A stretch of 64,000 bases of DNA, taken from NCBI RefSeq assembly GCF_000340215.1, contig NW_006921546.1, positions 62,001 to 126,000 of the forward strand. Direction: 5' to 3'. This document shows positions 1 through 13,208 of the stretch, in pieces. The notes under the pieces were generated by a model that made no database searches, had not been told where the DNA came from, and saw nothing but the letters and a program-made list of their open reading frames with translations. The position numbers and the translations under genes were made by a program. Origin of the DNA: Pseudocercospora fijiensis CIRAD86 (taxonomy: Eukaryota; Ascomycota; Dothideomycetes; Mycosphaerellales; Mycosphaerellaceae). The stretch's first letter is position 1. Each line of letters starts with the position of its first letter.

Positions 1-860
1 ATAGTCTTAGGGCCTAACGCTATAGACGATAAGCGCTAGGAGTAGATCGAGTATAGTTAAAGAGACGAGATACTAGTAAAGGGCTAAGGTATAAGTCCTA
101 TTAATCTAGAAAATTATAGTTAAAGCTACTACGAAAAGCTAGTAAGGATTAGAATCGAGACTAGTCGTCTTTATATCCTCGATATAGAGTAGAAGTTTCT
201 TTATTAGTATTAGAGCGAAGCCTTTACGTCTATAAAGGCAAAGTAGCTTGCGATTAATACGATCGGGGCTAGGTATCTAGGGACGGTAGAAGTGTTACTA
301 TAGGAGGAAGGGGTATAGGTAATTATTCTATACTCGGTATATATAGCCGGCGTTCGTAGCCGGTAGATACTAATAGTTAAATAGAAAGCGTTTCTCGAAG
401 GCAGAGTGCTACTACTATATAAAATCTTTACTAAGGCAGAGAGGGCTTATATCCGGAATCTAAGCTACTAGTAGGATAGGTTAGCGTTAGAATTCTCTAA
501 ATCTCTATATAAGCCTCCGAAGGATTACCTATTTTAGCGATACGGCTTTATCTCGACTACTCCGTAGGCACCCGAAGAAGCTCGAGCGCTCTTTAAGGTC
601 TTTACTAAGAAGCGGAAGGAGTTCGAGGATTAGGATTAGTTAATAGAGCTATTAGTTAGTCTTAGGTTTCGTAGTTAGACTCGGCCTAAGCATTTGCTTA
701 TCGAGTATCTTATACCGAAAGAGGATAGATTAAGACTAAAAACGAGCTTAGATTCGTTAGGTATAGTAGCTCGGTTCCGTTAGTAGGAGAGAGCCGCCGT
801 ATAGAAGGCAAAATTTAGGTAGTTAGGGTAGCTAGGAAAGAAATTCTAGTAGTTAGGCTA
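1..860 (+). pseudogene. Unrecognised coding relic, charged C-terminal part
   Basis: Frame 1 stays readable across this stretch if TAG/TAA are taken as mutated Gln or Trp codons. It gives a hydrophilic, helix-prone protein, for example PEEARALFKVFTKKRKEFED near 550-630 and RPKHLLIEYLIPKEDRLRL near 680-745. The start lies outside the window, so this is a 3' part. I do not recognise the family. The other two frames are denser in stops. The C-terminal part runs into a degenerate repeat at 821-940. A GCCGG-containing motif sits inside the frame near 347-365. The protein could belong to a mobile element, but nothing in it proves this. Confidence 0.4.
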
Positions 861-940
861 GCTAGGGTAGCTAGGAAAAAAAATCTAGTAGTTAGGTAGC
901 TAGGAAACAAAAAAAAAGGTAGCTAGCTATTTACTACCTA
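821..940. repeat. Degenerate short tandem repeat (gtagttagg / tagctagg)
   Basis: Variants of gtagttaggtagctagga recur about four times, separated by A-rich runs, and end in a small inverted repeat (ggtagctagctatttacta followed by cctagctatt). From 941 to 1347 I see no convincing gene. Confidence 0.5.
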
Positions 941-1347
941 GCTATTCCTAACGATACGATACTATAAAAGAAAGGGTGTTTCCCTATAGCTACTAGTATA
1001 TATCTACTACTCCTAAGTCCTTACCTTACCGTACGAAACCTTAAAATATACCGACCGATATTGTATATATACTAGGCGCTATACTAGGAAGGGTAATAAC
1101 GAAACGATAGTCGAAATAGTCTAGTATACGAGCGAGATTACGACAACGTCGAGAGGAGGTCGTATACTTACCTTCGAGCCTATCGAGTCCTAGACGACGA
1201 TTAGGGCTAGATTTATCCTCTCCGAATCCTAGTAGTAGGAATTTATTATAGGGTACTACTACCTAGTCCTTACCTTTACGGAGTCTAAGTAGAAGGTTAT
1301 TCGGAGATATAAGAACATCGAGTATTAACCCGGAAATCTTCGAAAAG

Positions 1348-1728
1348 GCTAGCTAGGCGTATCTTTAGAAACCCGAGTATATAGAGCAGTTTAATTAATA
1401 GGTTTATAAGATATAGTTCCCTTTATACTTACGTTTAAAGGAGTGTAAACTCCGGAAGTACTCGATACGATAGAGGAGTAAGGAGCGAACGGATACATTC
1501 TAGAAGTTCTTTATAGAGGGGGCATTACACCGTTATACGACTTCTCGACTTAAAGGTTAACTAGTAATTGTCTATAACTTCTACGGTTTAATCTTAAAAT
1601 ACCCGAAACTAGGGGATAGGAACTTATCGCCTACGAACTATCTCTATTCTAAACGGTATCGGGAATCTTAAGGAGAGAGGAGAGTTAATATAGATACAGC
1701 GTTCTAGAAAGAGGTACGTCTTCTAAAA
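1348..1728 (+). pseudogene. Unrecognised small coding relic
   Basis: Frame 1 gives about 127 codons interrupted only by stops that RIP can create. The product is basic and rich in Tyr, Gln and Arg, with segments such as KPEYIEQF, FFIEGALHRY and LVIVYNFYGLILKYP. Neighbouring frames break much more often. The upstream end is unclear and no ATG is visible, although an ATA could be a mutated start. It lies just upstream of a minisatellite and a hAT transposase relic and may be part of that element. No family recognised. Confidence 0.35.
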
Positions 1729-1730
1729 TG

Positions 1731-1880
1731 CTAGCTATAGCTACTAGCTATAGCTGCCGGCTATAGCTGCCGGCTATAGCTACCGGCTATAGCTACCGGC
1801 TATAGCTACCGGCTATAGCTACCGGCTATAGCTACCGGCTATAGATTCCGGCTATAGATTCCGGCTATAGATTCCGGCTA
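1731..1880. repeat. 13-bp minisatellite (ccggctatagcta)n
   Basis: About eleven near-perfect copies of the 13-bp unit ccggctatagcta, with late units ending in gatt. Copies differ mainly by A/G at one position (gctgcc versus gctacc), as RIP would produce. The same GCCGG core recurs as short clusters up to 8.7 kb. Confidence 0.9.
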
Positions 1881-1926
1881 CTTAAATCAACCGTAGAGGT
1901 CTAGCTAATTATTATAGGCTACGCTT

Positions 1927-4060
1927 AAGGAAGCTCTAGGATTAAAGGCTACCGATTTCTCCCCCGAAGACTTTAAGCAACTAGCAAACGAAATGCTAGC
2001 TACAAACGGTCTTCCGGAAGACTTCTATAAAAGGGAGTCTATATAGAAGATATACCTATATCTTATAAACTACCCTCCCCTATTTCTCGGCGCGACAACC
2101 TAGCGTATTATATTCGAAAAGAACAAAGAGGCTACGTTAGACGACATTCGGGAGATCCTCCGTAATACTCGCCGAGTAGCTATTACTATCGATAGCTAGT
2201 TAAGCCGAACTATAAGAGCCTCCTTCCTCTCGATTATACTATACTTTATTAATTCGGATTAGAAACTCTAGGAACTTATAATCGGATTCCCTAAAATTCT
2301 AGGTTCCTATACTAGTAAGGATATAGCGAAGCTTGTCTATACGGTAATAGATAGAGTTAGCGTAACAACGAAACTAATCTCGATTACTACGGATAACGCT
2401 AGTAATAATCGAATATTATATAAGGCGTTATATATACAATTTACTCGTATATGTCTTTAAAATTACTAATTATATCGATAGGGTCGAGTACGTAGAGGAG
2501 ATTATAAGGTCTACAATCTAGCTTAATCTTCCGAATATTAAGCTCGCTACGATTCCGGATACGTACGATAATATATACGACGATAACGATAAAGAGGAGC
2601 CTAGTAATAGCCCTAGCCCTATTAAATCGGAGCCGACGTCGTTACTAGTTACATCCCTATAGAAGTTTCCCTACCTCGCTTATATAGTTTAAATCGCGAT
2701 CCGAGCCCTCTTTAAGACGCTTAAAATTGCACTATTATACGACGACTAATAGAAGATCCTAGATAAGGATAAGGTAAATTCGAAAGTCGAGAAACTCGTT
2801 ATAGCAATAAGATAGGATAAGGTAGAGAGCCTCGCTCTCGTTTTATATAAGGTATAACTTTTGTCTATAGCTAGTACCTATAGCCGGTAACCTAGTATAG
2901 TTCTAACTCTTTTTCTCTAGCTTCGTCGTCTAGTAATATATACGAACTCGAGCTTATAGAGATATAACCGATTCGAGGCTATTTAAAAGAACCTAATCGA
3001 GCGCCCTAAAACCGATACCTAGAATATCGTATAGAATAAGCGATAGTAAAAGCGGCCTCCTTAGCGCCTACTCCGTTTTATCTAAGACGTTAAAACCCGG
3101 TTCGATTCGACTTTCTATATAGTTACGAGGGGATATACTTTACGTACCGCTTTCGAGATCTATTAGAGTTCCGAGGGTATTAAGTAGCTTAGGCTTACCT
3201 CCGCTAAATAGTACTAAGTAGAGTATCTCGTCGATATTAGTAAGTATTATACAAAGGTTACTACTACGATTAGAAGAACCCGAGGACCGACGATCTACCT
3301 TATCTTTACGTACTATAACTAGCTCTTTAACGAGCTCGAGGAAACCGTAGCTAAGCTAGCTAAGAAGAGCGTTCCCTAGAAAGTAGCTATAACGAAAGCT
3401 ATAGATAGCTCCTATACTAAGTTATATAAATATTATAGTGCTACCTTTAAGTCGTTCGAGGATATCTATAGCGTTACGTACTTACTTAACCCGGTAGAAA
3501 AGGATATATACTAGTAGAGGCTAGAATAGAAGGCGGACGAGGTATAGCCGAAGCATTACTAGACTATTCTAGAAAAGATATTCTACGAGCGTTAGAAAGA
3601 AACTAGTCTAAATGCAGCTCCTATAAAGAAAAAGAAGGTTTAGAGGGCTCCGATATTATACCTATTTCGTAGGTAGGAAGTAGAGGTAGAAGAGGAAGCA
3701 ACTACTAAAGGGAATAAAGAAGAGTTCGATCTCTATCGGCGCGCGAGTAAGTATAAACCCGTAGGCTCGGAAAGAGGGCTAATAATCTCTAGATCTTACC
3801 GGTCTTCTAGATGAATTCGGAGACGATATTCTCGCTATATAGTAGCGGTTAGAGCCTAAGTTTCTAACGACAGCGTCGGTCGCTCGGGACGTTCTCGCTA
3901 TCCCGAGCGTAGGTATAGGCTATAAGAGGTCTTTTAGTATCGCTCGTTACTAGAGCCGCTTTAATCGAATATACTCGCCTACTACCTTCGAATCTATTAT
4001 AGTATTCCGATACTATCTCCTCTACTAGAATCGCTAAGGTAGGTTACTAAAGATTATACT
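1927..4060 (+). pseudogene. hAT-superfamily transposase relic
   Basis: A cut-and-paste DDE transposase of the hAT type, broken by many stops. Frame 1 near 2182-2400 carries a catalytic-core start (ITIDS) and the signature ISITTDNASNN, typical of hAT enzymes. Near 2672 a Cys-Leu-Ala-His-like segment appears as YLAYIVQIAIRALF, with Cys and His mutated to Tyr. Near 3080-3130 the segment QDVKTRFDSTFY matches the conserved hAT block. The C-terminal dimerisation domain is clear at about 3879-3965 (ARDVLAIPSVGIGYKRSFS). The frame shifts between blocks, so introns or indels are present. Length, about 700 codons, fits the family. Terminal inverted repeats were not found. Confidence 0.85.
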
Positions 4061-4418
4061 AAAGGAGTTAATCGAGGAATTAGAAAACCTTAAGATCGTA
4101 GAAACCTAGGAGCGCGAAGAGAATGCGAAATTTAGTCTAAGCGAAACCCTAATTAGCGATAACGAAGAGGAGGAAGGCGGAGGTAGAAGGCGATACCGGG
4201 TCGAGAAGCGGAAACGTATATAGGCTTAGAGTAGCTTTAAGGAGACGAAGCGTTTACGTATAAGGTAATATAGCCGGCGTATATAGCCGGTATATATCCG
4301 AAATATATTTCGAATTCCTAGGACCTAAATAGACTAGTTGCTATAGTAACCGACCCCGCTTACCTACGGACTATTTCTAATTCTCTATTCGCTCTTCCTC
4401 TCCTTCTTCCCTTTCCCT

Positions 4419-5221
4419 ATATTCTTAAAGACAAATATACCTTAAGGATTCGGCTCTTCGGGCCTTCCTAAGCCGGCTACCTCCCCTTCCTTAAGCTACT
4501 ATCCTTTATTCGAATCTAACGATAACCTACTAAGGCGGTTTAATAGAAGACTATTTGTTCTAAAAGGTAAGAAGCATTAATATCTCCTTACGATTATATA
4601 CTTATTAATTTTCTAGGTCCTACCGATATACCCTCGTCGCCTAAACGCGTAGATAAATATCTTTAGAGGCTAAAGGGCAAGGGTAAAGTAAGCTAAGTAT
4701 AGGGAGACCGTAGCGAGAACGAGATATCGGAAGAGTAAGGCTCTCCGTAGTATATACGAAGAAAGGGGATTCCTCGGAAAACAGTACCGAAAAATAAGAA
4801 GGCTTTAGATAGATAGGAGAAGGCTAAAAAGAGTAGGCGGACGAAGACTATCGCGAAGAAAAGTTATCTTTCTATTAAAAATAAGGGAATAAGACAGGAC
4901 TCGACGATAAAGAAGCGGCGCTTTAAACTAGGTACTATTACCCTTCGCTAGATCCGGCTTTTCTAAAACAAAAGAAGGACCGAGCTTTTAATCCCTAAGA
5001 CTCCCTTCTAGCGACTCGTCCGAGAAATTATATTAGATTTTCGGTCTAGTATACGATTTACGGCTAAGGCGATTAGTGCTCTTTAGGAAGCTACGGAGGC
5101 ATTTCTCGTAACCGAGCTTAAGCTTTTAAACCTCCTTACTATCTATACGAAGCGGGTTACTCTTTAAAATAAAGATATACAGCTTCTAGCTAAAATTCGG
5201 CGTCGGTTTATAGCGGATTAG
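4419..5221 (+). pseudogene. Divergent histone H3-like protein, relic 1
   Basis: The histone fold is at about 4922-5210 in a frame shared with a long Lys/Arg-rich tail. It reads KKRRFKxGTITLR, then PFQRLVREI, FTAKAISALQEATEAFLV, IYTKRVTLQNKDIQLL. The stops or CAG fall where H3 has conserved Gln (LFQ, PFQ, ALQE, DIQ). Spacing between helices equals that of H3, except for two extra residues in the alpha-N segment (FQNKRRTELL against YQKSTELL). The tail of roughly 140 residues lacks the canonical ARTKQTARKS start. A likely intron lies at 4567-4616 (GT to TAG, branch-like ttattaat) and splicing keeps the frame. A CT-rich stretch at 4381-4418 looks like a fungal promoter, and the start is probably ATA from ATG at 4419. 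It could be a centromeric-type or orphan H3 variant. Confidence 0.82.
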
Positions 5222-5606
5222 TTAGAAATTGTATTTAGTCGTTAGATTAACCTAGGAGGAGGCCTATTTTCGCATCCTTTTACCGGCTATAGGTGCCGGC
5301 TATATTTCTAATTTTATCTCCGCGCCGTCCCTAAATCTAAGGTACGAAGTAGAAACCTAGCGCTCTATATTTACCCGGCTATTACAGAGACGAGCTACAT
5401 TTAGATTAGTTTCTTCGTATATCGCGACCTAGCGGGTAGTAAGCGAAAGGGCGATAGAACGTTTATAATACGTCTCTATTTAGACCTAAAATACAAAGGT
5501 CCTAAAGAGCCCTAGTATCCTAACTATAAGGAGATTCTTTAGCATTAGCACTTTAATCCTCTATACTACGAGGTAGATAGTAAGCCTACGAGAGAGAAAC
5601 TTTAAC
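5222..5606 (+). pseudogene. Unrecognised coding relic downstream of H3-like 1
   Basis: The frame of the H3-like relic continues past its probable stop. From about 5366 it becomes well coding: IQISFFVYRDLAGSKRKGD, then LYLDLKYKGPKEP and ILQHQHFNPLYYEVD. It may be a second gene or a downstream exon. The pattern faintly recalls the middle of fungal DUF3435/tyrosine-recombinase proteins, but this is only an impression and I do not assign it. A GCCGG pair sits at 5281-5303. The frame ends where the 353-bp duplication begins. Confidence 0.35.
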
Positions 5607-5610
5607 GAGA

Positions 5611-6316
5611 AATTCTCTATAATACGTAGCGCTATTATATAGCTATAGATACGTACTAAGTCCGGCAACTCGAAGAAGATTTAAGACAGCGACCGAGTAG
5701 GAGAATAATAGTATATTAGTAGAGTCGAGGTCTTACAAGCGAAGCATAAGATAATATAGGCTCTTAGTCGTATAGAGTAACGTACTATATAAATAACTAG
5801 GCGTGCTACTCTTATTTACTTACGACCTATATCCTAGGATGCTCTACTCGTACTTTTTATACTCTTTTCTAATACCTTACCTATAATCGCTCCGCGACAA
5901 CCGAGTAAATATAAGCTATAGGATTTCCGCTCGGTACCTTAGCCTTCGAGATACGGCGGAGTTAATTCTCTATAATACGTAGCGCTATTATATAGCTATA
6001 GATACGCACTAAGTCCGGCAACTCGAAGAAGATTTAAGACAGCGACCGAGTAGGAGAATAATAGTATATTAGTAGAGTCGAGGTCTTATAAGTAAAGCAC
6101 GAGATAATATAGGCTCTTAGTCGTATAGAGTAACGTACTATATAAATAACTAGGCGTACTACTCTTATTTACTTACGACCTATATCCTAGGATACTATTC
6201 TCGTACTTTTTATACTCTTTTCTAATACCTTACCTATAAGCGCTCCGCGACAACCGAGTAAATATAAGCTATAGGGTTTCCGCTCGGTACCTTAGCCTCC
6301 GAGATAGGGCGGAGTT
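5611..6316. repeat. 353-bp head-to-tail tandem duplication
   Basis: Positions 5611-5963 and 5964-6316 are the same sequence twice with no spacer. They differ at only about a dozen sites, mostly C/T or A/G (for example gcgtgctac versus gcgtactac). Each copy has a TATA-like box (actatataaataa) followed by a CT-rich stretch (ttatactcttttctaa), a layout like a retrotransposon LTR or a promoter. Two abutting LTRs are one possible origin, a simple tandem duplication another. No coding frame is evident. Confidence 0.85.
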
Positions 6317-6861
6317 AAATTTAGAGCGATAGCCGGCACTCGTAGCCGGCATATAGAGACGGTAGTAGGCCTTTTCCTACTAAATAACTAGCTTGTTTAG
6401 TATAGCCTACCTAATATTTCTTATATTTACTAGCAATAGGCCTAGGTTACTTATAAGATTACTATAGCTAGTAAAGGCATTACTAAAGAATATCTATACT
6501 ATAGTAGGATACTATTATTACGCCGGCTATTTATTAAAAGGAGGCTTTCGCCTATTACTATACCGGCTATAGATACTAGCTATATTTTAAAGTCTGCCGT
6601 ACCTACCTTTTTTAGCCGTACCTGCCTTTTTTAGCCGTACCTACCTTCTTTCCTTGCTCTAACGTTACTATAATATAGGCTTGCGCGAAGCTTACTCTAT
6701 TACCTAGCGATACCGCGATACTACCTCTCTCGCTATATTCAACCTTCGTATCGATACCTATACCTCTACGCTCTATATCTACTACCTCCGTAATACCCTC
6801 GCTCCGCGCGCGCCTTCGTATACCTTCGTAACGTACTTTTTTCCTTAATTCGACGACTTTT
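6317..6861. other. Intergenic stretch with a 19-bp triple repeat
   Basis: GCCGG clusters occur at 6332-6352 and near 6562. At 6596-6652 a 19-bp unit (gccgtacctgcctttttta) is repeated three times, directly upstream of the second histone-like relic, so it may be promoter-associated. No gene is seen here. Confidence 0.5.
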
Positions 6862-7537
6862 ATAATACCGAGTCTGCTTAACTAAGTTACGACGCCTCGT
6901 AAGAAGGGACCTACTACTTCTACGGGTCGTAATAAGACCGGAAATAATAGAACGAGTATAGTATATTAACGTAAGAGGGCTACTACTACTACCGCTAGCT
7001 CCGGTACTAGAAAGGGCGTCGCGAGCAAGGCTCCGTATAAGACAACGGCGGGCAAGGCTCTACGTAAGACGACAACTAGCGCTTCTACTACTAGTAGTAG
7101 TCGTACGAAGCGTCGATAGCGCCTAGGAAGTAAGTCCTATTTATAGCCGGCAGCGTAGCCGGTAGCGTAGCCGGTAGCGTAGCCGGCATTCTTACTATCT
7201 TTTTACTAATCCTTCTTTAGCCGTAGCCCTCCGTTAGATTCGGTAGTATTAGAAGAGTTCTAAGCTCCTAATCCGTAAAGCTCCTTTCCGACGACTTATT
7301 CGCGAAATTGCCTAGGTTTATAGAACGGACCTTCGCTTCTAAGCCTCCGCGATAGACGCCCTTTAAGAGGCTATAGAAGCCTACCTAGTTCGTATCTTCG
7401 AATGTATATTTCTCTCCTATCTCTTTTCGGACTATACTAATACTATTTTAGCGGTCAACCTTATAGCTATCTACGTAAAGCGTATAACGATTATAGATAA
7501 GGATTTTAAAGCACTCGATTAGATTCTAAAAGGCTAG
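6862..7537 (+). pseudogene. Divergent histone H3-like protein, relic 2, with two introns
   Basis: A nucleosomal H3-type protein, broken by RIP. The fold reads VALR-x-IR-x-Y-x-KSSKLLIRKAPF, RRLIREIA, ASAIDALQEAIEAYLV, then NLIAIYVKRITI. The stops sit at the conserved H3 Gln codons (YQK, IAQ, RFQ, ALQE). The tail is Lys/Thr/Ser-rich and includes AGKAxRK, like the GGKAPRK block of H3. Intron 1 (7130-7220) splits the RPGT motif after GGA-A, and intron 2 (7404-7451, GTATAT to CTAAT to TAG) splits after IFE. Removing both restores exact H3 spacing. Loop 1 has H3 length, without the extension usual in CENP-A, so I call it an H3 variant and not CENP-A. After IKDF-like residues the C-terminus diverges, so the exact stop is uncertain (7537 or 7567). 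The start is probably ATA at 6862 or 6865. Confidence 0.88.
7143..7183. repeat. GCCGG minisatellite inside an intron
   Basis: Four copies of agccggtagcgt lie within intron 1 of the second H3-like relic. They are the reverse complement of the cluster ccggctacgctg at 7763-7800 and 8618-8640. Confidence 0.75.
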
Positions 7538-7727
7538 AATGTCTATATTCGAGATAGTGCTAGGTAGGATAGATGTTCTAGTAGGAAGGATATTCGTAGT
7601 GTCGTCTATAAGCTTTTCTATATACGAAATAAGCCGCGGTTATACGGCGCTATATACCGCGCTCTAAATACTCTCTAAGCATATATATATAGTATAGTAT
7701 ACTTTATTAGCCGTACGGAATAGAAGT

Positions 7728-8675
7728 CTTCGAAAATCCCGTTAGTACTAAGGAGTTAAAAGGCCGGCTACGCTGCCGGCTACGCTACCGGCTACGCTAC
7801 TAGGTCTTATAAAGAACTAAAAGAAGATAGACATTCTAGTTAATTTGTATTACTTTGGGTTTTTAGAAAAAGAAAATAAGGAAAAAAGGAAGAAGATTAA
7901 AGAACCTAATACTTATAGTTATAGGTATTATCCCTATTCTCTAGACTATATTATATACCTGCTTTCGCAACTCTACCTAATACTCCTACTAAATATCCTT
8001 ATACTCTACCTACTAGAAATTTAACTAGGTACCTAGACCTGTAGCTAGCTCTATATCTTTTACTATCTTCTATAGGTTAAAGGACTCCTCTATAGTAGCC
8101 TCTACTTCCTTATACAATACGAAGTTACTACCTACCCTATCCTTAATATCTGCTAAATAACCTAGAGTTCTAAGGAACGAACTAGCATTCGGCCGTAGTA
8201 TAGCGAGTAACTAGTAGAACGCCCTATAGAGCTACCTTATAGCTATTTCGTATATAGTACCGATATCGAGGGAGGAGCTATCCTAGTACTTAATATTAGA
8301 GTATAGTTTAGTAGGAAAGTGCTAGAACTTCTTACGGAGAGCTTCGACGGAAATCGATAAGTTCTACCTAGATCTAGATAAAGACATTCTACTAAGTAGT
8401 TAGGGAATTAAACTATAAACGAAAGGATGAAATTTATACCTAAGGAGTACAGTTTCCGAACTAAACTATAATACCTTATATATATATATATATATGCTTT
8501 TGATTAGTTAGTGCCCTTAGCTAATTGTCTATAGATTTAAGGTTATATAAGTACCTTTATACAACTACGTAGCCTAAGTAGGATTCGAAAATTCTATAAG
8601 TACTAAGGACTAAAAATACCGGCTACGCTGCCGGCTACACTGCTAAGTCTTACAAAGGGCTTGCTTAAAGCTACG
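7728..8675. repeat. Pair of ~93-bp direct repeats flanking a small ORF
   Basis: Copy 1 (7728-7820) and copy 2 (8582-8675) share ttcgaaaat, tagtactaagga, a GCCGG minisatellite (ccggctacgctgccggctac) and aagtcttacaaag-like ends. Copy 1 has one more minisatellite unit. They bracket about 760 bp containing a minus-strand ORF. They may be ends of a small element or products of a segmental duplication. A (TA)n tract lies at about 8477-8495. Confidence 0.65.
7863..8387 (-). pseudogene. Unrecognised 174-codon relic
   Basis: On the minus strand an ATG at 8387 opens a frame that runs to TAA at 7863-7865 with only RIP-type stops inside. The protein begins MSLSRSR and looks helical: VEALRKKF, TIYEIAIRQLYRAFYQLL, LGYLADIKDRVGSNFVLYK, VEATIEESFNLQKIVKDIEL. 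A hydrophobic run ends it. No family recognised. It is convergent with the second H3-like relic and sits between two direct repeats. Confidence 0.5.
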
Positions 8676-8880
8676 TATACATTCGTATACTTCTTAAAAA
8701 CCGATAAATTATATAGTTCGAACTAGCTACTTATATAGTTGCTTAGCAAACTAACCTAAACTAAACTAGAGTTTCGGCTTAGTAAACCAAACTAAACTAA
8801 CCCGAACTACTACGGGGTCTAATTAGGAAGTCGATAGTCTACTATCGAATATCGTACCTATCGTATCTTCTCGGCGCGAA

Positions 8881-10035
8881 TAGAAGTATAACGATCGTTC
8901 CGATAGCTAATATACTCGTACTTAATTTTCCTTAACTATCGCCTACGCTATTACTATCTATAAGTCGTAGAGTATAACTTTAGATAAGGATATACTTAAT
9001 ATCTCTAAGAAGGACTTTACCCCTACCTTAACTTATATCGCTTACTCTCGCTTCTATAATCTCGATAATATACTCTTCGATAAGCTATTTAACTATAATT
9101 GCTTTAAAGGCAAGCCGTATAAGTCTTATATCGATCGCTATATAGATTATATTTATTATAAGAAGTAGCGTAGTCTACTACCTAGAGCCGTCCTTTCCTT
9201 AGATCCGCTATATCTAGCTCTCGACGCTGCTTAGCGCGACGAGTATTACTAGGAGCGTAGTCTATAGACTCTATAGGCTTAGTAGGAGTATCGACTTTAG
9301 TAATAGCGTAACTAAGAATAAGCTAAGTAAGATATACTTCGTCGTCGATAGAAAGTAAAAGAGGCTAAGCTTAAAGTAGCCCTTCTCGAAATCGCGAGAA
9401 TAGAGTCTAGATAAGGTAAAGGCGAAGGTTAACTACTAGAGTCGTCTAAGGATATACTAGCTCTTTCGATAGCCTTATTCGCCTTCTTAGAGTATACACT
9501 TCTAACGCTAATTGTACCTAGTTAGTAGATAACCTTTACGGCTCTATATAATAGGTTTACTAAAGTCTATAGTCGGCGCTTTACGAATACTAACTATATA
9601 AACGCCCTTTATAGTCTCGCGAGTCGAAACGAAGTCGTTCTTAATAGTCTACGTATCGTAGCTACTACTTATATTAAAGACGACCGCCGCCTCGGTAATT
9701 AGTACGTAGTAGGAGAGTTCCTTAATAAAGAGACCTTCTAGAGTAATATTAAGGCTAATAGGCAAGCTTAGTAGACTCGTTAGCCCGAATAGCTTCTACG
9801 CGATAACAATATAGTTAATAGTAAGCCGGCGACCTAGTAAGAGTAAAAGCAAAGGTAGTATATAGAGATAGCTACTAAAGAGGAAGAGCTTAACGAAGAG
9901 ATATATATTTAGATTACTAGGATAGAAGAATAGGCTCGATAATTAGGCTTCGATAATAGACTACGTAGCAAGTAGGAGAAAGACTTAGAGATAGCGTAGA
10001 TATAGAATAATAACGATAATACGGGCTTTAAGTAA
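8881..10035 (+). pseudogene. Unrecognised Gln-rich coiled-coil protein relic
   Basis: Frame 1 runs for about 385 codons with stops explained as mutated Gln or Trp. The N-terminal part (9001-9180) has aromatic residues and possible Cys (FNYNCFKGKPYKSYIDRYID). The middle (9241-9420) is a Gln/Arg-rich coiled coil. The C-terminal part has KDDRRLGNQYVVGEFLNKE and ends in another acidic coiled coil before TAA at 10033. The similar-sized ORF on the opposite strand (10402-11592) converges on it, suggesting a two-gene module. No domain is recognised, and an ORF of a DNA transposon is possible. Confidence 0.5.
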
Positions 10036-10401
10036 TATATTATATACGAAGGATAGTACAATCGCTATACAATCGCTACTTATATAAATATAATAGCTAC
10101 GAGCGCGCTATAGATACTAAATCTAATTTATTCTCGAGCTCTATACGTCGATCCGCTTAATTAGGATAAGTACTATAGGGCTTAAACGATACTTTATAGT
10201 CTTAAGTATAGTATAAGCCTCTATAGTAGTTATTCGCTATAGACCGAATACGTCTAGATCTTCTTTAATCTAGGAAGTACAACGACCTACTAGTATAGGT
10301 AGCTTATTATTTAGCCGATAACGAGGTATAGTACGACGACCTAGTATCTAAGCCTCTTCTATAGCGCTAGTAGTACGCTTATCTAATATAGTCGGTTATA
10401 A

Positions 10402-11589
10402 TTAATATACTATAACTATAGCGTAGCTCGGAGCGGTACTAGAAGGTCTAGTATTAGATCCGGTTATAGAGGCGTTATTACGAGCTACTAGCGGCGGTAT
10501 AGATATTATATTATAGGAGACCTCGCCTCGGCGAACTAGATCCTCCTTACGAAGTATAGTTATACCTAATTTTAATAACTTCTAGACCTTCTTAGCCTCT
10601 ATATATCGCTCGTTAGCTATCTATACCTAGGTCTATATACCCTAAGTGGCCTTAGTAGCTACTACTACTTTAGCGGCCTTCTTCGTATCCTTCTTACTCT
10701 TCTTACTAGGACGCTTAGCTTTACCTCGGCCGAGATACTTTATATAGTTACTATAGACGTCGTTAATAATATTAGTTAGTATAGTAAGTAGGCTATCGAA
10801 TAGTAGTTTCTTAGTATTCTTATTATCGGCCTTATACTAAGCTATAAAGCCTAGTACGCGCTCCTTAAGAGCGGACTTATCGATATTATCGCTATAGTCC
10901 TACTTCTTAGTTAGATATAGCTTGCTTAACTACTACTACTAGAGATCCGATATAGTTATATTAGAGGGGATATCGAATATACGACTATTAAGTTAGTCTA
11001 GAAATAGTCCCTTTCCCTACTTTAAGACCTACTCGAAGATACATTCTACTATCTAGTACCTAGGTATACTATAGCGAGGCCTACGTACTAGTTTAGGCAA
11101 TACTAGCGGATCCTTCTAGTATAGGTCTATATCTAGCTCTAGATTATATATATTATAGTATAAGTCGGAGCCTTATATAAGGCGGTCGGGATCGATAGTA
11201 TATATATACTTATCTTCTCTAAGATAGTCGAGGCTAATAGTACGTATATACTTTCGCTACGCCTTAATATAATAGTAGCGGCTATTAATTAAGCTTATAA
11301 AAAGAGGATTTGCCTTCTCGCGAGCTTCTTTTTACTATAGCTTCTAGTCTTCTATATTAGTATTTTTAGCGATAGTATTATCGACGGCATAATAGCATTT
11401 ACTACTAGTCTAATACGTTTCTAGATAGATAGTAATACGTAGTCGAGCGATAATACCTTCCCTATCCTCGTACTACTCTATTAAGATATTAAAAGTAGCT
11501 TTATCGAAGGTATTCTATCTATCGCTAAGAACTATATTAATCTCTAGATTAGAGACTATATTAGTACGTAGGGGGCTTATACGAGCTAG

Positions 11590-11592
<3 letters not shown>
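10402..11592 (-). pseudogene. Unrecognised relic with basic C-terminal region
   Basis: The minus-strand frame runs about 397 codons with RIP-type stops only. It starts near a (TA)n tract (probable ATA from ATG). Segments read LRTNIVSNLEINIVLSDR, FNILIEQYEDREGIIARL, GFIAQYKADNKNTKKLLF, then a Lys-rich nuclear-localisation-like block (GRGKAKRPSKKSKKDTKK) near 10690-10740 and a helical tail. It stops at 10402-10404. The block order (helical N-terminus, long middle, basic patch) might suit a DNA-binding protein, but I recognise no family. Confidence 0.5.

Positions 11593-11618
<26 letters not shown>
11590..11618. repeat. (TA)n microsatellite
   Basis: About fourteen TA dinucleotides directly upstream of the minus-strand ORF start. 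RIP of CpA/TpG repeats could have produced or lengthened it. Confidence 0.8.
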
Positions 11619-11621
<3 letters not shown>

Positions 11622-12239
11622 CTAATATAGTACTACTTAGCCTACTATCGCCGGTACTAGCTTATAAAGGATTATTAGTAGATAGTTAGAGTCTTCTAAA
11701 ACTCTACGCTACGTATCGTCTAACTACTATAGAGGTATAGATACTGCCTTTAACTTACGGCCTAGAAGACTAGAGCTACGACCGAGCGTCTAGTAACTCG
11801 GCTAACTTAGGATTAAGCGCTTTCTTTAATAAGTATCTAACTACGAGAGCCTTATACGTTACTCCTATTATCGAGTTTATAATAGCGCGACCTTACTTTA
11901 CGTTATATAACGTTATCGTATATCGTATTGCTTTATACCTATAGTACTACCGCCTACTAAATAGTAGTAGTAGTAGAGGTATTACTATCGTTATTATTAC
12001 TACGCTCTAGTAGCGTATCGTATCCTATCGCCTAAGTAGCTATATTACTACTACGCTACTCTTACGCTCCTCGCTCGCTCCCTTACTTTAGACTTCTAAT
12101 TAATAAATATATTACGCCTCTATATTATATAACGGATAATGTTATAATTACTCTTTATATCTTTATATCGATACCTTAGTCGCGGTCTCTCTAACGCGTT
12201 AAAATAGTCTATATCTTACGCTAAAGATCTTGTTACTAC

Positions 12240-13208
12240 TCCCTAGCTATCCCCTTCCTAAAAAGATAGCTACTCCTATATCTTATACTATAGCCTTCGT
12301 CCTTAATGCTAACGCTTTAGAAAAATCTAACCTTTTAGTCTAGTATCCGAATATACCCTACGCTATAGTTATAGAGGATCGCTATAAGCGTCTTTCCTAG
12401 TCCCCCGTATTTACTAATACCTAGATACGCTATCTTAAGGAAGCCTTCTATATTTACGATCGACGTATATTTAGTACTAAGATACTAGAAGAGATATAAT
12501 TACCTCCTACTATCTTCGAGATAATATACTAACCTATAGTAGTTTCCTAGCCTTAGGCTTCGAGGCGACGGCGTAGTAGATATTATTAAGATCCGCGATA
12601 CCTTAGATAAGGTAATTCGGTTCTATCGTAATACTAGCGATTCTCTATAGCTACGCTTCCTTTATCGCGAGCTCTACTATATTAGATAGCCCTTTATATA
12701 AGAAACCTATCCTATACTATATAGCGAGCTCCCGGGTAGCGATAGACTCGCTAAGTATAGATACGAATCCGTTAATAGTATTATTAGCAAGTATATTAGC
12801 GTAGTCTTAGACAACTATAGCGGGGAAATTATCTTCTTCTATAACTTCTACGTCTCCTCTCGTCCTCTATTAAGTACTAATTTAGAAGATATCGCTATCG
12901 CTTATATATTTAACTATATCCTCTTAGCCGATTAGTTCTTAGCTAAGTTCTAGATCGCTATAGTACCGTTTCGAGACGCCGGCTTAAAGTAGGTATACGG
13001 TAACTATCTTCGTAACCCTACTACTCCTCCGGACCCGCGGTTCCTACCTAATAACTCGGCCGAGAGTAGTCTTAGGGTAGACTATAATCGTCTAGCGTAT
13101 ATAGACGTTAATCTTAAGGCTCTTATAGAAATCCTAATCGAGAAGGGCTATACTATAGATATATAGTATATTATTAATCTTACTAGTAATAATAATAATA
13201 TAGGTTAA
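12240..13208 (+). pseudogene. Unrecognised coding relic, possibly spliced
   Basis: Frame 2 is coding-like at about 12290-12500 (IVIEDRYKRL, TNTQIRYLKEAFYIYDRRIF). The reading then moves to frame 0 from about 12575 to 13180 (IRDTLDKVIRFYRN, RFLYRELYYIR, VLDNYSGEIIFFYNFYVSS, LEDIAIAYIFNYILLADQFL, VDYNRLAYIDVNLKALIEIL). The shift could be an intron or an indel near 12540-12575. No known domain is visible. Both parts use the same RIP-type stops, so they probably belong to one gene. Confidence 0.4.

What the first reader, a model, noticed from the sequence alone, without database searches (positions are those of the whole stretch)
4419..7537. Two different divergent histone H3-like genes within 3 kb of mobile, RIP-mutated DNA
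Both relics keep the whole H3 fold (PFQRLVREI / RRLIREIA, ALQEA-x-EA-[FY]-LV, KR-[VI]-T) with stops exactly at conserved Gln codons. They differ from each other across tail, fold and introns, so they are not recent copies. RIP acts on duplicated DNA. Their mutation therefore suggests each was multicopy, and their position among transposons suggests they were carried by a mobile or segmentally duplicated unit. H3 variants encoded in such a unit would be an unusual way to influence chromatin or centromeres.
Basis: partly seen in the sequence, partly recalled or inferred. Interest (0 to 1): 0.88.

Follow-up and report, generated by a model that had tools for sequence, protein, structure and literature searches.

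The report
Histone H3 genes inside dead transposons
Two odd histone H3 genes sit inside one cut-and-paste transposon copied hundreds of times in this fungus and since wrecked by the host's mutation defence; the case is already published, but one gene seems to carry introns, which does not fit the published idea that it was copied from a transcript.

Summary
Window 4937-5209 (A) and 7221-7528 (B) encode the folds of two different RIP-broken histone H3-like proteins. Both lie in one DNA transposon (window -1198 to 8821; 10,020 bp) with 20-bp inverted ends and an 8-bp target duplication: a hAT element. Its left end matches 329 sites in the 73.9-Mb genome. This is the case published by Dhillon et al. 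2019 (PMC6710886), almost certainly in the same species, Pseudocercospora fijiensis. It is therefore already known.

Three details go beyond or against that paper. (1) The published "16-amino-acid insertion" in the second copy is a 48-nt segment with intron-like ends. A second such segment lies one codon from the host H3 intron 2. B thus looks intron-bearing, not a captured transcript. (2) The element has diverged subfamilies, and the five copies of them examined all carry both A and B. (3) Between subfamilies 11 of 11 indels in the H3 coding parts keep frame. Fixed transversions in the folds lean to third codon positions in two of three comparisons. This hints at once-selected cargo, on weak statistics. 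Both are H3-type, not CenH3, so nothing supports a centromere role.

The parts
1..8821 (+). hAT transposon, part inside the window; the whole element is C15:60802-70821 (window -1198 to 8821, 10,020 bp)
   Evidence: colinear with 9 other copies apart from nested insertions and length changes; left end of copy C5 not seen
8802..8821 (+). right terminal inverted repeat (left one lies just outside the window, C15:60802-60821)
   Evidence: 329 genome sites match the 45-bp left end with up to 3 mismatches, reversed-pattern control 0
8822..8829 (.). right 8-bp target site duplication ATTAGGAA; left copy at C15:60794-60801
   Evidence: identical 8-bp duplications in 9 of the 9 copies with both ends in view (10 examined)
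1954..2412 (+). hAT transposase, catalytic-core-like segment (..ITIDS..TTDNASNN..), RIP-broken
   Evidence: read; no Pfam hAT hit for this piece; fixed transversions between subfamilies 4/1/9 by codon position; its likeness to a hAT core is recalled
3260..3634 (+). hAT transposase, middle segment, RIP-broken
   Evidence: transversions 5/5/9; no Pfam hit
3843..4100 (+). hAT transposase, dimerisation domain, RIP-broken
   Evidence: Dimer_Tnp_hAT E=0.0048, 17.1 bits, below cut-off 21.4; transversions 4/0/6
4567..4616 (+). possible 5' intron of H3-like gene A (GTAAG...CTAG, 50 nt)
   Evidence: sequence; the GTAAG start is kept in 5 of the 7 rows shown (changed in C12; interrupted by a short element in C11b)
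4617..4936 (+). H3-like gene A, long basic N-terminal tail
   Evidence: inter-subfamily indels +3, -6, -21, -12, all in frame
4937..5209 (+). H3-like gene A, histone fold, no intron
5611..6318 (.). two tandem copies of a 355-bp repeat in the element
   Evidence: 96% identical; arrangement differs between element copies
6904..7129 (+). H3-like gene B exon 1 (tail; its true start is not settled)
7130..7220 (+). H3-like gene B intron 1 (GTAAGT...TACTAAT...TTTAG) with a 12-bp minisatellite inside
   Evidence: one codon 3' of the host H3 intron 2
7221..7403 (+). H3-like gene B exon 2 (fold, first part)
7404..7451 (+). H3-like gene B intron 2, 48 nt (matches the published 16-residue 'insertion')
   Evidence: same length in the 15 copies aligned; without it B is gapless against H3
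7452..7528 (+). H3-like gene B exon 3 (fold, last part)
   Evidence: in copy C17 a short nested element interrupts it near 7523

Best explanation
A hAT-superfamily cut-and-paste transposon carries, beside its transposase, two separate histone H3-type genes (A and B). The element jumped to hundreds of sites, RIP recognised the repeats and mutated CpA to TpA in them, and cargo and transposase are now broken in the copies seen. SHOWN: one element holds both genes; ends, 8-bp duplications and colinear copies; the RIP signature; diverged subfamilies whose five examined copies all hold both genes. INFERRED: that the genome is P. fijiensis; that B came from genomic H3 DNA with introns (its intron 1 lies one codon from the host H3 intron 2); that the H3 frames were kept by selection while the subfamilies diverged; and that before RIP these proteins were made and used. 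The likeliest use is as replacement H3s that alter packaging of the element or its donor site, but no data here test that. It is the published P. fijiensis H3-hAT family.
For: Element anatomy and 8-bp duplications; 329 left ends, control 0; A and B both found in each of the nine other copies; Dimer_Tnp_hAT weakly, behind the transposase core; both genes in the four subfamily-II copies and the one subfamily-III copy; coding indels 11 of 11 in frame against 3 of 13 in introns, Fisher p=0.00015, or 9 of 9 without the two tail-repeat events, p=0.0005; fixed transversions (which RIP does not make) by codon position between subfamilies I and II 10/6/18 in the folds (p=0.037), and 13/6/24 in the transposase (p=0.003), summed, tested; paper with matching genome size, element size, ends and original H3 on scaffold 6.
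Against: Transversions are uniform by codon position over the whole of A or B in all three subfamily comparisons (A p=0.41, 0.65, 0.44; B p=0.74, 0.74, 0.91). In the folds the I-III comparison shows no third-position excess (9/4/9) and II-III a slight one (9/7/15; summed, not tested). The fold/tail split was made after seeing the numbers. The intron indel control is small and rich in minisatellite events. Subfamily III rests on one copy, subfamily II on four. Intron 2 is 48 nt without an in-frame stop, so an in-frame 16-residue insertion cannot be ruled out without RNA. No relative with an intact copy was in reach. DUF659 was not found here, and the dimerisation hit is below its cut-off. The paper reads the capture as a transcript.
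Confidence: 0.85

Rival explanations
1. Passive transduplication, as published: a host H3 transcript was captured once, is present twice in the element with a 16-residue insertion in the second copy, and rode along without function until RIP destroyed it.
For: Stated in PMC6710886; A has no intron in its fold; transversions over whole genes are uniform by codon position in all three comparisons.
Against: The 48-nt 'insertion' has intron-like ends and, in subfamily I, a branch-like TACTAAT, and sits where its removal makes B gapless; intron 1 of B lies one codon from a host H3 intron. All 11 coding indels keep frame. A and B differ at about 48% of fold residues and each is a deep separate branch.
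Confidence: 0.3
2. Two independent captures: A from a processed or single-exon H3 source, B from genomic H3 DNA, at different times.
For: Different intron structure; A-B identity (52%) is lower than either to H3 (58%, 66%).
Against: The tree joins A and B, though weakly (58/47), so one origin is neither shown nor rejected.
Confidence: 0.45
3. The relics are centromeric H3 (CenH3) genes that spread with the element and act at centromeres.
For: A weak CENP-T histone-fold hit for A (E=0.0017, 18.8 bits, below cut-off 28.1).
Against: Loop 1 has H3 length, not the 4-residue longer CenH3 loop of this genome; no RWQ; closer to H3 than to CenH3 in the 7 rows printed of 18; CenH3 intron position differs.
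Confidence: 0.03

Closest known systems
H3-carrying hAT family of Pseudocercospora fijiensis and five related Mycosphaerellaceae (Dhillon et al. 2019, PMC6710886)
   Same: Element about 9.5-9.9 kb (10.0 kb here); 20-bp TIR; 8-bp TSD; one or two H3-like genes; hundreds of copies; RIP-broken; original H3 on scaffold/contig 6; 16-residue length difference in the second copy
   Different: I read that difference as a 48-nt intron and find a second intron in B; I see diverged subfamilies with both H3 genes in the copies examined; a dimerisation-domain relic, which the paper could not identify, is seen weakly
H3L-carrying hAT of Pyrenophora tritici-repentis (Manning et al. 2013, PMC3538342)
   Same: hAT transposase plus a divergent H3-like gene between TIRs; H3L has tail insertions and matches neither H3 nor CenH3 fully
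   Different: 5.6 kb and 2.3 kb, one H3L, 26 nearly identical mostly intact copies with ESTs and, in the long form, a central ORF; Dhillon et al. report no DNA similarity between the elements; I could not compare the sequences

Membership tests
hAT superfamily DNA transposon | 8-bp target site duplication | tested here: met
   9 of the 9 copies with both ends in view, of 10 examined
hAT superfamily DNA transposon | short terminal inverted repeats | tested here: met
   TAGACCCCGTAGTAGTTCGG and its complement
hAT superfamily DNA transposon | transposase with hAT dimerisation domain | tested here: inconclusive
   E=0.0048, 17.1 bits against cut-off 21.4, on a RIP-broken read-through
hAT superfamily DNA transposon | DUF659 domain | tested here: not met
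   no Pfam hit in six frames of window 1-8800 or in pieces; Dhillon et al. report it for this family; RIP damage may hide it
Published P. fijiensis H3-hAT family | about 9.5-9.9 kb, 20-bp TIR, 8-bp TSD, one or two RIP-broken H3 genes, hundreds of copies, one intact H3 on scaffold 6 | tested here: met
   length here 10.0 kb
Published P. fijiensis H3-hAT family | H3 captured as an intron-free transcript | tested here: not met
   B has two intron-like segments, not proven by RNA; A fold intron-free
Histone H3 | histone fold matching PF00125 over its cut-off | tested here: met
   A 90.3 bits, B 75.7 bits, cut-off 26.4; B's best stretch covers positions 37-96 of 122, probably because of the intron
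Canonical H3 | conserved ARTKQTARKS... N-terminal tail | tested here: not met
   tails of A and B are longer and diverged; A keeps only an internal RTKTIAKKS-like stretch
CenH3/CENP-A | longer loop 1 and RWQ, as in the host CenH3 | tested here: not met
   A RFTAKAI, B RFQASAI, loop of H3 length
Pyrenophora H3L | common descent with A or B | not testable with these tools
   no Pyrenophora entry recognised among the 120 listed of 629 hits for A, or the single hit for B; most hits are unnamed

The most novel reading that the evidence does not exclude
The hAT lineage kept two diverged H3 variants as working cargo through the split of its subfamilies, as chromatin proteins that helped the element (for example by changing nucleosomes on its own copies), and the same design exists in the Pyrenophora element: 'histone-armed' transposons would be a recurring strategy in Dothideomycetes rather than an accident of gene capture.
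Probability: 0.3. Interest if true: 0.75.

Novelty: already known. Interest (0 to 1): 0.35.

Why it matters
The element is a published example of a transposon multiplying a core chromatin gene, so the finding as such is not new. What may matter is how the capture is read. If B entered with introns and both H3 reading frames were kept while subfamilies diverged, these were functional transposon-borne histones, not dead passengers of one captured transcript. That could be tested in relatives with undamaged copies.

Tried and rejected
Rejected: CenH3 origin (loop length, RWQ, identity). Rejected: A and B as recent duplicates (52% fold identity). Rejected: a plant relative. The two top protein hits for A, from Lotus and carrot, are tandem H3 fusions, which probably score high because two H3 domains add up. 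An open stretch at window -147 to 840 gave no Pfam hit (window 1-843) and no clear codon signal (18/16/24, p=0.41, against one subfamily-II copy). Six-frame scans of the neighbouring 8830-12500 gave nothing at E<0.1. The first tree had CenH3 one residue out of register and was replaced. In one search P0127 was dropped because the script could not cut its columns, so one search lacks it too. Literature beyond the two papers: I saw only the listings of the searches; in them I saw no other paper on this element or its introns. That library is open-access only. Of PMC6710886 I read parts 1-3 of 7 (abstract to the end of Results) and the first of two parts of the Discussion; of PMC3538342 passages and the first part of one section. 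On the repeat check of this report I added the two weaker fold comparisons, lowered the novel reading from 0.35 to 0.30 and raised the passive-capture rival from 0.25 to 0.30 for that reason, and corrected the statement on A's 5' intron.

Full report
What is there. The window lies at C15:62001-126000 of a 73.9-Mb genome in 30 contigs. The flagged stretch holds two histone H3-like genes on the + strand, both broken by TAG and TAA. Read through those stops, A (4799-5263) matches Pfam Histone at 90.3 bits and B (7196-7590) at 75.7 bits, against a cut-off of 26.4. Dinucleotides of the window show strong RIP: CpA observed/expected 0.16, TpG 0.21, TpA 1.72.

One element, not two. DNA searches for A and for B gave seven pairs of matches at similar spacing, the window's own included (only 40 of 398 and 40 of 470 candidates were scored). 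I took nine further copies with flanks. Their similarity to the window runs from window -1198 to about 8821 and stops there, apart from nested insertions and length changes; in C5 the left end was not seen. The ends are TAGACCCCGTAGTAGTTCGG and its complement. The flanking 8 bp are duplicated exactly in 9 of the 9 copies with both ends in view, the window included. The 45-bp left end occurs 329 times in the genome with up to 3 mismatches, the reversed control pattern 0 times. An 8-bp duplication and a weak Dimer_Tnp_hAT match (E=0.0048, below its cut-off) behind a readable transposase core make it a hAT element. DUF659 was not found here.

Already published. Dhillon et al. 2019 (PMC6710886; I read abstract, Background, Results and the first part of the Discussion) describe 784 H3-like sequences in 471 hAT elements of Pseudocercospora fijiensis. 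The full-length elements are 9.5-9.9 kb with 20-bp TIRs and 8-bp TSDs; the copies are RIP-inactivated except the original H3 on scaffold 6. Here the intact H3 is on contig 6 (L001). Manning et al. 2013 (PMC3538342; passages and part of one section) earlier described a hAT with an H3L gene in Pyrenophora tritici-repentis.

The introns of B. The paper reports that the second copy differs by an insertion of 16 residues and concludes that a transcript or retrocopy was captured. In B the extra segment is 7404-7451, exactly 48 nt, starting GTATAT or GTATGT, ending TTTTAG, with TACTAAT inside in subfamily I. It is 48 nt in the 15 copies aligned, with no fixed transversion between subfamilies. Without it, B aligns to H3 with no gap (..FE-x-V-N-L.. 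against ..FE-D-T-N-L..). A second such segment, 7130-7220 (GTAAGT...TACTAAT...TTTAG, with a variable 12-bp minisatellite), interrupts the P-G-T-V-A-L-R motif one codon downstream of the host H3 intron 2. Gene A is intron-free through its fold and has a possible 50-nt intron in its 5' part (4567-4616), whose GTAAG start is kept in 5 of the 7 rows shown. I therefore think B derives from genomic H3 DNA. Only RNA could settle it, because the 48-nt segment is also open in frame. That intron signals look like this in fungi is recalled, not tested.

What kind of H3. Over 82 fold codons A is 57.7% and B 66.3% identical to the host H3, and 52.4% to each other (means of 10 copies). The 7 A and B rows printed are closer to H3 than to the host CenH3. 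They lack the longer CenH3 loop and its RWQ. In an 82-column tree of 26 rows, A and B each form one group (100/100) on long branches; whether they share an origin is open (58/47). The database searches listed H3-family proteins for A (120 listed of 629 hits) and one H3 for B; I recognised no transposon-borne relative among them.

Were they working cargo? Five further loci revealed diverged subfamilies: II (four copies, about 75-85% identical to the window) and III (one copy, about 84-89%). All five carry both A and B. Between the subfamilies every indel in the H3 coding parts is a multiple of three: 4 of 4 in A and 7 of 7 in B exon 1; exons 2 and 3 have none. In the introns it is 3 of 13 (Fisher p=0.00015, or 0.0005 without the two tail-repeat events). 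Many intron events are minisatellite changes, so this control is weak. RIP makes only transitions, so fixed transversions are safe to count. Between I and II they are, by codon position, 10/6/18 in the folds (p=0.037), 13/15/9 in the tails (p=0.47) and 13/6/24 in the transposase as a positive control (p=0.003) (sums, tests). Against this: the folds give 9/4/9 for I-III and 9/7/15 for II-III; over whole A or B all three comparisons are uniform (p from 0.41 to 0.91); and the fold/tail split was made after seeing the data. Two single-copy 1-nt deletions were seen in the transposase core, one of them at the edge of the stretch; in A and B no frame-breaking indel was seen in 15 copies, but short nested elements interrupt B near 7523 in C17 and the 5' intron of A in C11b. 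I take this as weak to moderate evidence that both H3 reading frames were under selection while the element diversified.

Verdict. The centromere idea is not supported. The system is published, most likely from this very species. What I add is a likely correction (introns in B, so genomic capture), the subfamilies, and hints of selected cargo.

Noticed in passing
window -147 to 840: A long stretch with few stops in one frame at the left of the element, without a Pfam match; possibly a third gene comparable to the 'central ORF' of the Pyrenophora element, but transversions are not biased by codon position (18/16/24, one subfamily-II copy).
   Followed up: partly
L033 and L031 (copies C11b, C17): A roughly 370-bp piece made of the left and right ends of this family is nested inside two subfamily-II copies, like a short non-autonomous derivative.
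   Followed up: no
window 7130-7220: A 12-bp minisatellite (GTAGCCGGCAGC-like) varies in copy number inside the presumed B intron 1; similar GCCGGC motifs recur elsewhere in the element.
   Followed up: partly
window 7021-7060 and equivalents in C17, C11b: The tail of B has extra 15-bp units in two subfamily-II copies (+15 and +30) that would encode a short basic repeat.
   Followed up: no
window 8830-12500: Next to the element lies other RIP-rich sequence, seemingly with long readable frames near 9000, but no Pfam match at E<0.1 in six frames.
   Followed up: partly
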